Source: Candidatus Woesearchaeota archaeon (lineage in GTDB: Archaea > Nanobdellota > Nanobdellia > Woesearchaeales > WJKR01). From it: a stretch of 64,000 nucleotides of DNA. Both the position numbers and the translations under genes were made by a program. Location of the stretch: positions 1-64,000 of the forward strand of contig JAFGNA010000017.1 in assembly GCA_016927245.1 (NCBI GenBank), given 5' to 3'. Positions 9,924-60,209 of the stretch are shown here, one piece after another. The notes under the pieces were generated by a model, which saw only the letters and a list, made by a program, of their open reading frames with translations, was not told the origin of the DNA and searched no databases. Positions within the stretch are counted from its first letter, which is position 1, and each line of letters begins with the position of its first letter.

Positions 9924-10505
9924 ATGGCTGAAGGTCGTTATACTATAATTATTCTCCCAGATAAGAATTTTTCAGATTTGGTTTTTGATATTAGAAGTGA
10001 GCTCGTTGATTCTATCGTAGTCCCGAAAGTTCCTCCTCATGTTACTTTGAGAGAAGATTTTTTTTCTGATAACATTGATGGGTTCATAGATGAATTCAGT
10101 GGTTTGATTGATCTTTTTTCTTCTTTCAATATCTCATTTTCACATGTTGACGTTTTTCAAAGAGGTCACGTTGTATATCTCGTCAACAACCACGAGCAAC
10201 TACAGGCGCTTCACGAATTAACTGTTAAGACTTCCCAAAAGTATGTTTCTACACCAAAAGAAATTGATTTTGATTGCGAACTCAACGAACGACAAAAAGA
10301 ACTTGTTGCCTTGTATCAATTACCTTTCTATTTTGAATATTATAATCCTCATATGACTCTTGTACGTTTAAATGATAATTCTAACAGAGAGTTAATTCTT
10401 AAGCATATTCAATCTAAACAATTACCAAAGATGTTCAAAGCGACTGCTGTTTGTATTTATGATAAGGTTAAAAAAGACATTTATAAGTTAATACCTTTGG
10501 ATTAG
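9924..10505 (+). CDS. 2H phosphoesterase / 2'-5' RNA ligase superfamily protein
   Basis: 193 aa; two H-x-T motifs: PPHVTLRED and NPHMTLVRL. Confidence 0.7.
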   Translation: MAEGRYTIIILPDKNFSDLVFDIRSELVDSIVVPKVPPHVTLREDFFSDNIDGFIDEFSGLIDLFSSFNISFSHVDVFQRGHVVYLVNNHEQLQALHELTVKTSQKYVSTPKEIDFDCELNERQKELVALYQLPFYFEYYNPHMTLVRLNDNSNRELILKHIQSKQLPKMFKATAVCIYDKVKKDIYKLIPLD

Positions 10506-10545
10506 AAAAACATAACTTCTATAAGCATCTTTATATAAATTATCA

Positions 10546-10559
10546 CGGGCGGGGCTATC
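10546..10559 (+). repeat. att-like repeat copy 2 (CGGGCGGGGCTATC)
   Basis: 13/13 match to tRNA-Gln 3' end; 14/14 to copy 3. Confidence 0.85.
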
Positions 10560-10707
10560 GAGGGAAAAGCGATTCCTGAGGACCTCAAAATTCAACGGGC
10601 GCTTTTCCTCTTTCAGAACCCTTTGCAACACGCATTGTTCATGAATTGAACTTGATTTTTACAAAGGACTTTTTTTGCTTTTTTTAGAAAATGAGTTTAT
10701 TGGGAGG

Positions 10708-11226
10708 TCATAATTTTTTAACAAAAGAAACAAGTTCTTTAATGTTCTTTTTATCGGTAAAGTCGACAGGTTTATTCCATGCTTGAATCATTCCTTCCTC
10801 ATCTTCTGATTTGTTCTTTTTTCTACGTAGGATGCTGATGAACATGCGCATTATGATTCTATTCTTGAAATCCAGCTTATTTTTGTCAAAACCACCTCTC
10901 AAATAGAATAGTTTTGTTTTATCATCTTGTATATTGTGTTTTGTAATATCGTCTATAACTTTTTTGTTGTATGGTGAAGCTCCTGTCGCATACACAACTA
11001 GTTTTTTTTCAGGAATTGCTTTCATGAGGTTATAAACTTTTTTTAGGCCTATTATTCCTATTGCGTGCAGACTTCCGCCATAAACTATGATATCGTATTT
11101 CTGTAGCATATTTTTATTCGCTTCTTTTTGTTCTATAATGTCTGCTTTCAAATCGTTTGCTATCCACTCAGCATATTTCTTTGTAAAGCCAGAAACTGTT
11201 TTGTAAATCACAATTGCTTTCTTCAT
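10708..11226 (-). CDS. Flavodoxin domain protein
   Basis: MKKAIVIYKTVSGFTKKYAEWIANDLKADIIE...YDIIVYGGSLHAIGIIGLKK...LVVYATGASP. Confidence 0.8.
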   Translation of the reverse strand: MKKAIVIYKTVSGFTKKYAEWIANDLKADIIEQKEANKNMLQKYDIIVYGGSLHAIGIIGLKKVYNLMKAIPEKKLVVYATGASPYNKKVIDDITKHNIQDDKTKLFYLRGGFDKNKLDFKNRIIMRMFISILRRKKNKSEDEEGMIQAWNKPVDFTDKKNIKELVSFVKKL

Positions 11227-11346
11227 ACTCGTATTTATCTTTACAACGTATATTTATATTTTTTTCTCATTATCTTGGTTCCCCCCGACCTGCTCAGTAT
11301 AGTATTGCTTTTTCCGAGGTTTCTTTAAATAGAAAGACGGAGGAGT

Positions 11347-11360
11347 CGGGCGGGGCTATC
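11347..11360 (+). repeat. att-like repeat copy 3 (CGGGCGGGGCTATC)
   Basis: 14/14 match to copy 2. Confidence 0.85.
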
Positions 11361-11406
11361 TAACATATCTGTTACTTTTTAGGGCTAATTGTTCCCTTTT
11401 GTTGTG

Positions 11407-11865
11407 CTATCTCCTCATATTCTTCAATTCTTTGTATCTTTCCTTTCTGAAATAATTGATTTCTGCAACGCCCTTTAGCAAATATCCTAAAAGAAAAGCG
11501 TATGTGTAAACCCCTTTCATCAAGAAATCTTTATTTCTTTTTTTTATCTCTGAAATTTCCTGGGAAGAATAGTTTTGTAGTTCGTTGCTTAGTGAATCTG
11601 CTTTTTCTTCTAATGATTCTTTTATTGTTCTTGCATAATCAACATTTTCTAAACTAAATAGTCTATTTTTCTTAAGGTCTTTTCTAACAGATTTTTGTTC
11701 TGACAATAAGTGAGAAATATTTCGATAGTTTTCGTGTTTATTTTTGTAATTTATCTCGTTTTGAATACCTATGGTGCTGCCTATTATGAATGCTCCTGCT
11801 GCGACTATTGCTTTCGCTTGTTTGTATCGTAAATAATTTTTACTCATTTTCTTCACTTGATACAT
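11407..11865 (-). CDS. Hypothetical membrane-associated protein
   Basis: 152 aa; two hydrophobic segments (AIVAAGAFIIGSTIG; GVYTYAFLLGYLLKGVA). Confidence 0.55.
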   Translation of the reverse strand: MYQVKKMSKNYLRYKQAKAIVAAGAFIIGSTIGIQNEINYKNKHENYRNISHLLSEQKSVRKDLKKNRLFSLENVDYARTIKESLEEKADSLSNELQNYSSQEISEIKKRNKDFLMKGVYTYAFLLGYLLKGVAEINYFRKERYKELKNMRR

Positions 11866-11968
11866 GATATGTAATCATTAAAAAGTAATAATTTCACTGT
11901 AAATATTAAATTATGTTGTTAAAAAAATAACAACATTTATATTGTGCTATTGATTATTCTTTAAGGAA

Positions 11969-12676
11969 ATGGATTTACTTGATGGACTAAAGAACGCTGA
12001 TTTAACTCCGAACGAATCAAAAGCATATCTGAAACTATTGCAAGTAAAAGAATTGAATGCAAATGAATTGGCTAAAAAAATATCTATGGATAGAAGTTTA
12101 ACTTATAGTATTTTGAATAAATTACTGGAAAAAGGCTTAGTTAGCTACAAAATAAAAAACTCAAAAAAATATTTTATTGCTTCAAAACCAATAAACTTGC
12201 TTAACAAATTGAAAGAAAAAGAATCGGTGCTAAAAGATATTGTTCCTGAACTTGAAAAGATTCAACAAACAGAAGATTTGGGCTACTCAATTGAAGTTTA
12301 TGAGGGAAAATCAGGACTCCGGTCATGGATTAATCTTATCTTAAAAGTAAAAGAATACTTTGCTTTTGGAATGACAGGTAAGGCTTATTACGAATTATAT
12401 GAAATGCCAAGGCTTGTAAAGGAATTCAAAGAGAAAAACATTAAAGGAAAATTAATTGGTTATGAACAAGATGATAAAAAAAAAACATACCATCAATTAG
12501 GTTTTGAGTATAAATATTTGCCTTTCAAAATGAGTGCTTCAACATCAATATTTGGAGATTACATTTCAATACATCACATCGGCGAAAAACCCTTAATTAT
12601 TGTAATAAAGAATAAAGAAATTGCAAATAGTTATAGAAATTTGTTTAATTATTTATGGAAAACAGCCAAAAAGTAG
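11969..12676 (+). CDS. TrmB-family transcriptional regulator
   Basis: 235 aa; N-terminal wHTH (LTPNESKAYLKLLQVKELNANELAKKISMDRSLTYSILNKLLEKGLVSY) plus C-terminal domain. Confidence 0.75.
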   Translation: MDLLDGLKNADLTPNESKAYLKLLQVKELNANELAKKISMDRSLTYSILNKLLEKGLVSYKIKNSKKYFIASKPINLLNKLKEKESVLKDIVPELEKIQQTEDLGYSIEVYEGKSGLRSWINLILKVKEYFAFGMTGKAYYELYEMPRLVKEFKEKNIKGKLIGYEQDDKKKTYHQLGFEYKYLPFKMSASTSIFGDYISIHHIGEKPLIIVIKNKEIANSYRNLFNYLWKTAKK

Positions 12677-12823
12677 GCCACGTATCTTTTTAATCAAGAC
12701 GACAGACATTATAAACCCGAAGATATTCCTTCTCGGAATACCCTTTATTGTGGTATGGGGGCTGAAAACCATGAAAAACAACGAGTCAGCCCCTAAAACT
12801 AATGGATATATGCAGATGCCCTT

Positions 12824-12833
12824 GCGGGGCTAT
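12824..12833 (+). repeat. att-like repeat copy 4 (partial, GCGGGGCTAT)
   Basis: 10/10 match to core of the other copies, at the AT-rich to GC-rich transition. Confidence 0.6.
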
Positions 12834-12930
12834 AGCTCTCTATCGGAGCATTCTGGGGCTTTTGACATGATTCCGTAGACGAACTGGTTTAATGAGAAAG
12901 ATTAAATAGGAGTTTGCATTGGACCGGCAC

Positions 12931-13236
12931 ATGGACAAGCGACTGCTCATCATCACTCTTCTTGCAGCTTTACTTCTGCTCGCAGGATGCGCGAAGACCG
13001 TAGCGGAGCTGACCAGCGACGATAGTTACGTCAACGAAAAGGTTAAGGTCAAAGGAGAAGCGAGGGCGCCGCTCAAGATAGGAACAATCTCAGGGTACGC
13101 CTTGGTGGATAAGAACGACGACGCCATCATCGTCGCCAGCGAACGACTACCAATAGAAGGAGAACGAGTCATCGCCAAAGGAACGCTCAAGCAAGGGCCG
13201 CTAGGCATAGGATATTACATCGAGGCTGAAGAATAA
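12931..13236 (+). CDS. Small lipoprotein with predicted OB-like domain
   Basis: MDKRLLIITLLAALLLLAGCAKTVAELT... lipobox LAGC. Confidence 0.65.
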   Translation: MDKRLLIITLLAALLLLAGCAKTVAELTSDDSYVNEKVKVKGEARAPLKIGTISGYALVDKNDDAIIVASERLPIEGERVIAKGTLKQGPLGIGYYIEAEE

Positions 13237-19875: not shown

Positions 19876-19938
19876 TTTATCCTCGCAACCCTAGTTTTTC
19901 CGCCAGAATAAGGCAACCACTAATTCTTTTTTAAATAA

Positions 19939-19966
19939 GCAACGCATAATGTATATTACGCGCAAT
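19939..19966. promoter_or_regulatory. dif: dif-like XerA recombination site
   Basis: GCAACGCATAA-TGTATA-TTACGCGCAAT: two 11-bp imperfect inverted arms around a 6-bp spacer; CGCATAATGTATATTA matches the core of E. coli dif; lies just upstream of xerA. Confidence 0.75.
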
Positions 19967-20008
19967 AAAGGTAAAGTATATAAGGAAAAGGCCTAAAAAG
20001 AAGCAGTC

Positions 20009-20812
20009 ATGGACCGATTGCGCACCGAACTGGAGCTCCGCGGATATTCTGACGCGACCAAGAAGAAATATCTCAAGTACAATGCAGACCTCCTAAAACT
20101 CATCGGCAAGCAAGCGGACGACATCAACAAGGACGACATCAAGAAATACTTGGCCTATTTGGTTGGAACAAAAAAGACGGCAGCTCGATCAGTGAATCTT
20201 GCCCGCGCAGCCCTGCTTTTCTTTCACAATCAAGTATTAGAAAAGAGCATCTCGGGCGTGAATGTGCCGAAAGTCCAGAAATCGCTGCCATCCGTGCTGA
20301 CGAAAGAAGAAGTCATCTCATTGATAACGGCCGCGAAGACCAGGAAAAGCAGTTTCATCATCCAACTATTATATGGTACGGGGGTTCGCGTCTCAGAATT
20401 ATGTGCTTTGAAGCGTTCTGATCTCGAACTACAGCAAGGCACGGGGTGGGTGCGCTCAGGCAAAGGAGGGAAGGACCGCATGATTCTCCTACCGCAAGAA
20501 CTCTATAAGGAATTGGAGCGGAAAACCCCTCAGAGTTTTGTTTTGGAAGGGAAGAATGGTCCCTTGTCACCTCGGACCGTGCAGGAAGTGGTGAAGAATG
20601 CTGCGAAACGGGCTAAAATAGCTAAGAAAGTCACGCCGCACACGCTCAGGCACAGTTTCGCGACGCACCTGCTCGAAGCAGGGAACGACATCAGGATAAT
20701 CCAAGAGCTGTTGGGACACGCCAATCTGCAGACCACGCAGATCTACACGCATGTCAGCAACGAGCGGAAGTTGCGCGTGCAGAACCCGTTGGACGCCCTC
20801 AACGACCGATAA
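20009..20812 (+). CDS. xerA: Tyrosine recombinase XerA/XerC-D family
   Basis: TGVRVSELCAL...GKGGKDRMI...HTLRHSFATHLLEAGNDIRIIQELLGHANLQTTQIYTHV (R, K, HxxR, H, Y residues). Confidence 0.93.
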   Translation: MDRLRTELELRGYSDATKKKYLKYNADLLKLIGKQADDINKDDIKKYLAYLVGTKKTAARSVNLARAALLFFHNQVLEKSISGVNVPKVQKSLPSVLTKEEVISLITAAKTRKSSFIIQLLYGTGVRVSELCALKRSDLELQQGTGWVRSGKGGKDRMILLPQELYKELERKTPQSFVLEGKNGPLSPRTVQEVVKNAAKRAKIAKKVTPHTLRHSFATHLLEAGNDIRIIQELLGHANLQTTQIYTHVSNERKLRVQNPLDALNDR

Positions 20813-58972: not shown

Positions 58973-60106
58973 GTGACGACCGATAGCATTATATTTGTTA
59001 CACCGACACCCGGACAAGTCACCGAGGTGGAGAGTGAGGAACAAACAAAATTCACGGACGACGAAAGGATCATTGAGATCCCTCCGGAGGATAAACAATC
59101 TCCAAGGAAGAGCAAACCCACTTATCCTCAAAACTGGCAAGCATATAATGCAGCAAAGACTAATGAAGACACCTACTTTAAACGCCTTCTAAGAGAACTT
59201 CTGTTCGTCAGCATAGATGAGAAGCCCTCAAAAAAACCCGGTAGGAAGGGCTACAGCGACCAGGATAAGATATTCGCTATGTGCATCAAAATATACTACA
59301 AGGGCGATCTACGCAAGGCCGAAGGCATCCTAAAAGAGCTCAAGAACCTCAAATTCATAGAGAAGGTGCCTTGCTTTAAAAGCATCGACAATTTCTTCAA
59401 CGACGAAACACTCACCAAAATACTGGATAATCTCATTCTCATCAGCGCATTACCGCTTGCACAGATAGAAGAGACAGGAGCTATAGACAGCACAGGCTTC
59501 AGTACGAGCCAGTTTGAGAGCTGGAACACATTCAAATGGGGGAAGCACGAAGGGAAAGAACGCGTCTGGAGAAAAGCCCATGCATGCACCTGCTGCAAGA
59601 CCAACGCATTCCTCAGTATTAAAGTTACTGAGAAGAACGTCGGTGACGCGGCGATGTTTAACGACGTTGTTGGCAACTACACCAAATACTTCAATATGCC
59701 TGATTTCGTCGCAGACAAGGCGTATCTGAGCAGAGACATTCTTAAAACTATCAAGAAACTCGGCATGAACCCCTACATCCCGTTCAAGAAGAACAGTATC
59801 CAAGCAGCAAAAGGTGCTATGATCTGGAGTCAAATGTACGCAGAATTCATGACGAACCGAGAGGAGTTCATGCAGAAATACCACCGCAGAAGCAATATTG
59901 AGACGAGTTTCCACATGCTCAAGATGCGCTTTGGCAACCATTGCATGACGAGAACCTTCCATGCACAGACCAACGAGATCAAAATCAAAACACTCTGCTT
60001 GAACCTCTGTATTCTCATTCAGGAGATGTTTGAGCGCCAGATAGTGATTGATTTCAACGACTGTGTTAATCTGTGTAATAATGAAGAATCCTGTGTAAAA
60101 TTGTGA
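58973..60106 (+). CDS. DDE transposase (IS4/IS5-like superfamily)
   Basis: GAIDSTGFSTSQF, KVTEKNVGDAAMFNDVV...FVADKAYLSRDILKTIKKLGMNPYIPFKKN, KYHRRSNIETSFHMLKMRFGNHCMTRTFHAQTNEI. Confidence 0.83.
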   Translation: MTTDSIIFVTPTPGQVTEVESEEQTKFTDDERIIEIPPEDKQSPRKSKPTYPQNWQAYNAAKTNEDTYFKRLLRELLFVSIDEKPSKKPGRKGYSDQDKIFAMCIKIYYKGDLRKAEGILKELKNLKFIEKVPCFKSIDNFFNDETLTKILDNLILISALPLAQIEETGAIDSTGFSTSQFESWNTFKWGKHEGKERVWRKAHACTCCKTNAFLSIKVTEKNVGDAAMFNDVVGNYTKYFNMPDFVADKAYLSRDILKTIKKLGMNPYIPFKKNSIQAAKGAMIWSQMYAEFMTNREEFMQKYHRRSNIETSFHMLKMRFGNHCMTRTFHAQTNEIKIKTLCLNLCILIQEMFERQIVIDFNDCVNLCNNEESCVKL

Positions 60107-60209
60107 TTATTTTTTACACAAAGCCCTCATTTCCGTAAATTATTTAAATGAGCTCATTCTACACCAACCTTGTCGACTTTAAATCAACAAAAACTAGGTG
60201 TTTTCGCGC

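What the first reader, a model, noticed from the sequence alone, without database searches (positions are those of the whole stretch)
19939..19966. dif-like site with an E. coli dif-identical core directly upstream of archaeal xerA
GCAACGCATAA-TGTATA-TTACGCGCAAT has the 11-6-11 architecture of a Xer site. Sixteen consecutive bases (CGCATAATGTATATTA) match the E. coli dif sequence GGTGCGCATAATGTATATTATGTTAAAT as I recall it. It sits about 42 bp before the XerA-like ORF. Pyrococcus dif is much less bacterial-like, so both the near identity and the linkage to the recombinase gene are notable. It may mark the replication terminus.
Basis: partly seen in the sequence, partly recalled or inferred. 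Interest (0 to 1): 0.72.

Follow-up and report, generated by a model that had tools for sequence, protein, structure and literature searches.

The report
dif site inside the xerA promoter
A 28-base DNA site at which the archaeon's XerA enzyme most likely untangles joined chromosomes sits right in front of the gene for that enzyme, and the same arrangement recurs across a whole order of tiny archaea, probably letting the enzyme control its own gene.

Summary
In detail: 19939-19966 is an 11-6-11 Xer-type site, 42 bp before xerA, sharing 16 consecutive bases and 21/28 in all with E. coli dif. It is the only such site in the 1.11-Mb Woesearchaeota genome. A congener keeps it (20/28). In the order, 49 of 58 genomes with both a site and XerA have the site within 3 kb upstream of xerA (median 129 bp), usually in one copy, with consensus AGTTCGYATAA-TGTATA-TTATRCGAACT and covarying arms. 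So it is the chromosomal dif of a single-recombinase XerA system, linked to its recombinase gene.

Not supported: the terminus claim. In a one-contig relative, dif lies ~92 degrees from the origin; the window's contig shows no skew switch at 20 kb. E. coli-likeness is ordinary within the order.

New: dif abuts the TATA box of xerA (26/33 proximal sites; control 4.4% per 15-bp window). Where dif is not in the promoter, a single 11-bp arm often is (19/51; 1.2 expected), and it resembles that genome's own dif (p about 0.001). This suggests XerA autoregulation through a promoter-embedded dif or half-dif: inferred, not shown. Archaeal XerA/dif, including linked modules, was already known.

The parts
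19939..19966 (+). dif site: 11-bp arm GCAACGCATAA, 6-bp spacer TGTATA, 11-bp arm TTACGCGCAAT
   Evidence: congener L015 ACCTCGTATAATGTATATTACCCGACGT; order-wide sites
19950..19955 (+). central 6-bp spacer TGTATA; strand exchange expected at its ends
   Evidence: same as E. coli dif; TGTATA or its reverse complement TATACA in 17 of 50 distinct order sites; cleavage position from PMC8371274
20009..20812 (+). xerA, tyrosine recombinase of 267 aa, presumed enzyme of the site
   Evidence: NF040815 recomb_XerA_Arch above cutoff; Phage_integrase and SAM-like N domain; aligns over most of its length to P. abyssi XerA 4a8e including catalytic motifs
19930..19937 (+). TATA-like element TTTAAATA just upstream of dif
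   Evidence: read; aligned TATAAATA in L015; a TATA box next to dif in 26 of 33 proximal sites
19977..19983 (+). TATATAA box, likely main xerA promoter, between dif and the start codon
   Evidence: read; TATATAAGG conserved in L015; about 32 nt before ATG

Best explanation
The 28-bp element is the single chromosomal dif site of this Woesearchaeota genome. Two XerA monomers bind its two 11-bp arms; when homologous recombination has joined sister chromosomes into a dimer, the two dif copies synapse and XerA exchanges strands across the TGTATA spacer, restoring monomers. XerA acts alone on both arms (inferred from arm symmetry and covariation). The site is built into the xerA promoter region next to a TATA box, so XerA bound to dif, or to one arm-like half-site in relatives whose dif has moved away, probably also regulates its own transcription, most simply by repression. 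Shown here by sequence: site, single copy, linkage, conservation, arm covariation, TATA adjacency, half-sites. Inferred: binding, recombination and regulation. My confidence is about 0.93 that it is the dif site and about 0.7 in autoregulation.
For: One site in own genome. Conserved in congener, 71% against 46% far upstream. Order-wide: 28/79 xerA loci with a full site within 250 bp upstream, 0/78 downstream, 1/79 shuffled; genome-wide model finds sites in 61 of 193 genomes, nearly always one place; of 58 with XerA located, 49 lie within 3 kb upstream, 26 within 150 bp, median 129 bp. Mostly out-of-sample check in other orders of the class: 26 of 51 within about 3 kb. Arms covary as a palindrome: 43 double-change cells against 19.6 shuffled, 0/500. 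XerA identity. Half-sites: 19/51 promoters against 1.2 expected, similar to own dif, p=0.0011. TATA box within 15 bp of dif in 26/33 proximal sites; a control 15-bp window has one in 4.4%.
Against: No experiment. The window's own outer arm positions are degenerate (6/11 symmetric), so its score is low within the order (27.7 bits). 132 of 193 order genomes gave no model hit at E<=0.05, partly from strict filters, missing or different XerA, or diverged sites. In the window the stronger TATA box lies downstream of dif, so repression by covering the start point is less direct here than in relatives. The position model was seeded from xerA upstream regions, which favours that location. The genome is in 24 contigs, so circularity was not shown.
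Confidence: 0.83

Rival explanations
1. It is only an operator: XerA, or another regulator, binds the palindrome to control xerA, and the true dif lies elsewhere.
For: It sits in the promoter region, and half-sites alone persist in promoters of relatives.
Against: No second credible site in the own genome. Fixed 11-6-11 geometry with a variable spacer across the order. Relatives with only a half-site in the promoter carry a full 28-bp site elsewhere, for example G149, G084, G118, G165.
Confidence: 0.07
2. It is the attachment site of a mobile element and XerA is that element's integrase.
For: Other XerA-like integrases exist in the genome, and a few relatives carry two dif-like copies flanking cargo.
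Against: One copy here, no direct-repeat partner, XerA of the chromosomal equivalog family, linkage conserved across the order, and the XerA-like paralogues have no such site.
Confidence: 0.04
3. A chance palindrome or AT-rich promoter sequence that happens to resemble dif.
For: 21/28 to E. coli dif is reached twice in a 1.3-Mb AT-rich genome.
Against: Conservation in congener and order, covariation and positional enrichment.
Confidence: 0.01
4. It is dif and in addition marks the replication terminus, as in most bacteria (a sub-claim of the best explanation, not exclusive of it).
For: The usual bacterial position; 122-142 degrees from the origin in Thermococcales (PMC2958812).
Against: G011: origin at ~761-764 kb, dif 431 kb, skew maximum ~168 kb. 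C5: no skew switch at 20 kb. Orc1-to-dif distances on shared contigs vary: ~354 kb of 1.4 Mb in G111, ~524 kb of 1.1 Mb in G040.
Confidence: 0.12

Closest known systems
Archaeal XerA/dif of Thermococcales (Pyrococcus abyssi)
   Same: Single XerA-type recombinase, 28-bp 11-6-11 site, one copy, no need of a second recombinase
   Different: There dif is not next to xerA and lies in the termination region; sites match the bacterial consensus at 14-18 of 28 (PMC2958812)
Sulfolobales xerA-linked dif
   Same: dif predicted close to xerA (PMC2958812)
   Different: Different phylum; no half-sites in the xerA promoter are mentioned in the passages read
XerS/difSL of streptococci and lactococci
   Same: Single recombinase genetically linked to its site (PMC5357621)
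   Different: 31-bp atypical site and a different recombinase subfamily; the window XerA is far below the XerS model's cutoff
E. coli dif with XerC/XerD
   Same: 16 consecutive bases and 21/28 identical, including the spacer
   Different: Two recombinases on unlike arms, activated by FtsK, dif at the terminus and unlinked from xerC and xerD

Membership tests
Archaeal XerA/dif system | 28-bp site with 11-bp inverted arms and a 6-bp spacer | tested here: met
   window arms 6/11 symmetric, order consensus fully symmetric
Archaeal XerA/dif system | XerA-type tyrosine recombinase encoded in the genome | tested here: met
Archaeal XerA/dif system | Single copy per chromosome | tested here: met
   for own genome; for order
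Archaeal XerA/dif system | Site located in the replication termination region (true of Thermococcales; Sulfolobales dif is described only as close to xerA, so not treated as defining) | tested here: inconclusive
   Relative G011: about 92 degrees from origin, not at the skew maximum. Own genome cannot be placed (24 contigs); no skew switch on C5.
Archaeal XerA/dif system | XerA binds and recombines the site | not testable with these tools
   needs biochemistry
Autoregulatory operator | Binding site conserved at the promoter independently of the recombination site | tested here: met
   in relatives: half-sites 19/51 against 1.2 expected, resembling own dif
Autoregulatory operator | Recombinase changes transcription of its gene | not testable with these tools
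   needs reporter or transcription assay
XerS/difSL-type module | XerS recombinase and 31-bp atypical site | tested here: not met
   XerS model 80.4 bits against cutoff 267; site is 28 bp

The most novel reading that the evidence does not exclude
In Woesearchaeales and related DPANN archaea, chromosome-dimer resolution and expression of the resolvase are coupled through one DNA element: dif is the xerA operator, and lineages whose dif has moved away retain a single XerA-binding arm between TATA box and start codon, so XerA senses its own dose or dif occupancy.
Probability: 0.65. Interest if true: 0.65.

Novelty: new variant of a known kind. Interest (0 to 1): 0.52.

Why it matters
It gives DPANN archaea, which are almost uncultured, predicted dif sites across dozens of genomes; I found none described in the papers searched. 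It also gives a testable answer to an open question: archaea lack FtsK, so how is Xer recombination controlled? A dif embedded in the xerA promoter, with half-sites kept where dif has moved, points to control at the level of xerA transcription, which Cortez et al. (PMC2958812) raised as a possibility.

Tried and rejected
GC skew of the window and of C5 gave no terminus signal. Raw identity to E. coli dif as evidence was set aside after a 1.3-Mb relative gave equal scores twice. Duplicated dif-like sites in L189, L190, L191, L192 and L185 were examined as possible dif-integrated elements; in L189-L192 the two spacers differ, so a simple integrated element is not shown. Paper searches for DPANN dif and for Xer autoregulation found none, within this library only. 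Genus and family searches gave only one relative, hence the move to the order.

Full report
Observation. The 28 bases at 19939-19966 are as described: 11-6-11, 42 bp before the xerA ATG at 20009. The E. coli dif quoted from memory is correct. Identity is 21/28 with 16 consecutive bases; the window's next best 28-mer reaches 18/28. In a 1.3-Mb, 35% GC relative, 21/28 is reached twice, so identity alone is weak evidence genome-wide. Specificity rests on what follows.

Copy number. The 16-bp core occurs once in the 1.11-Mb genome. A model of the order's sites (R1) finds one credible place in the genome, this one, at 27.7 bits; the next other place has 17.5 bits with E 2.2. The two other full-length XerA-like integrases in the genome (C21, C22, 44-45% identical) have no such site.

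The recombinase. The ORF 20009-20812 passes the NCBIfam XerA equivalog (246.8 bits, cutoff 220), has the integrase and SAM-like domains and is closest among solved structures to P. abyssi XerA 4a8e (E 2e-48), aligned through the catalytic motifs.

Relatives. The congener (Woesearchaeota Bin_423, L015/G001, XerA 80% identical) has the site at the same place: 20/28 identical, including TATAATGTATATTAC against CATAATGTATATTAC here, versus 46% in the far upstream stretch. Across the order, 28 of 79 xerA loci have a full site within 250 bp upstream, against 0/78 downstream and 1/79 shuffled; 53 have one within the fetched flanks. The genome-wide model search finds 61 of 193 genomes with a site, nearly always one place. 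Comparing positions with the best XerA hit: 58 genomes with both, 51 on one contig, 49 upstream and all of those within 3 kb, 26 within 150 bp, median 129 bp (distances typed by hand from the two tables). In other orders of the class, hardly used to build the model, 26 of 51 sites are within about 3 kb of xerA and the others are 4-21 kb away or on another contig. Consensus AGTTCGYATAA-TGTATA-TTATRCGAACT. The arms covary as a palindrome (43 double-change cells, 19.6 in shuffles, 0/500), as expected if one protein binds both arms.

Promoter architecture. Of 33 proximal sites, 26 have a TATA-type hexamer within 15 bp of dif, 20 of them on the upstream side; control 15-bp windows have one in 4.4%. 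In many relatives the TATA box is followed at once by dif, so that dif would cover the start point of transcription (position of the start point inferred from the usual archaeal TATA spacing). Many sites lying 270-460 bp upstream also have a TATA box on their upstream side, and in several of those loci another reading frame runs up to the xerA start (read), as if dif were at the promoter of a small operon. In the window a TATA-like TTTAAATA (19930-19937) abuts dif and a second, stronger TATATAA (19977-19983) follows; both are conserved in the congener.

Half-sites. Among 51 loci without a proximal full site, 19 have a single arm-like 11-mer scoring at least 10 within -110..+6 of xerA; 1.2 are expected from control tiles of the same loci. 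Many lie between a TATA-like box and the ATG (L045, L051, L058, L059, L070, L077). In genomes where the full dif is elsewhere the half-site resembles that genome's own dif more than the dif of others (mean 8.9 against 8.2 of 11, p=0.0011, 11 pairs); striking cases are L047 (CGTAAAA in both) and L092 (TGCGTTTAA in both). A decayed relic of a moved dif would not be expected to track the present dif, so I infer selection for XerA binding at its own promoter. This is inference; no regulation was measured, and relatedness among genomes was not corrected for.

Terminus. In the one-contig genome G011 (1.30 Mb) the GC-skew minimum (760.9 kb) coincides with the main Orc1/Cdc6 gene (764.2 kb), and the skew maximum is near 168 kb. 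dif is at 430.9 kb, about 92 degrees from the origin. The G011 site is weak (25.2 bits) though only 1.2 kb from xerA. The own contig C5 shows no skew switch near 20 kb. The terminus claim is therefore not supported, and cannot be settled for the own fragmented genome.

Known context. Archaeal XerA/dif is known from Pyrococcus, Sulfolobales and others; Sulfolobales dif lies close to xerA, and xerA of S. acidocaldarius is induced in the cell cycle (PMC2958812). A review speaks of individual xerA/dif modules (PMC5357621). Hence the site is a member of a known kind. What I did not find described, in this library, is a DPANN dif or a promoter-embedded dif or half-dif as xerA operator.

Noticed in passing
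L190 456 and 2462 (G388:C54); L189 2389 and 7408 (G211:C23); L191 2586 and 3790; L185 5836 and 6537; L192 201 and 831: Two dif-like sites flank 0.6-5 kb of other genes in a few relatives. Spacers mostly differ between the two copies; could be elements that use XerA to integrate at dif, or partly decayed duplicates.
   Followed up: partly
window 58973-60106: Transposase-like ORF in an AT-rich island (about 54-60 kb, 36-47% GC against about 58%) directly before a grpE-like gene at 60198.
   Followed up: no
window 10000-13000: Second AT-rich island (32% GC) with flavodoxin-like and TrmB-like regulator ORFs, judged by eye; probably acquired DNA.
   Followed up: no
L093 (G155) upstream of xerA: Palindrome GTTCGTAATAAT...ATTATGCGAATA with a much longer spacer than 6 bp in the xerA promoter, while a full dif lies on another contig; looks like an operator that has lost the recombination geometry.
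   Followed up: no
G000:C21:72187-72981 and G000:C22:4164-4949: Two further XerA-like integrases (44-45% identical) in the same genome without a dif-like site near them.
   Followed up: partly
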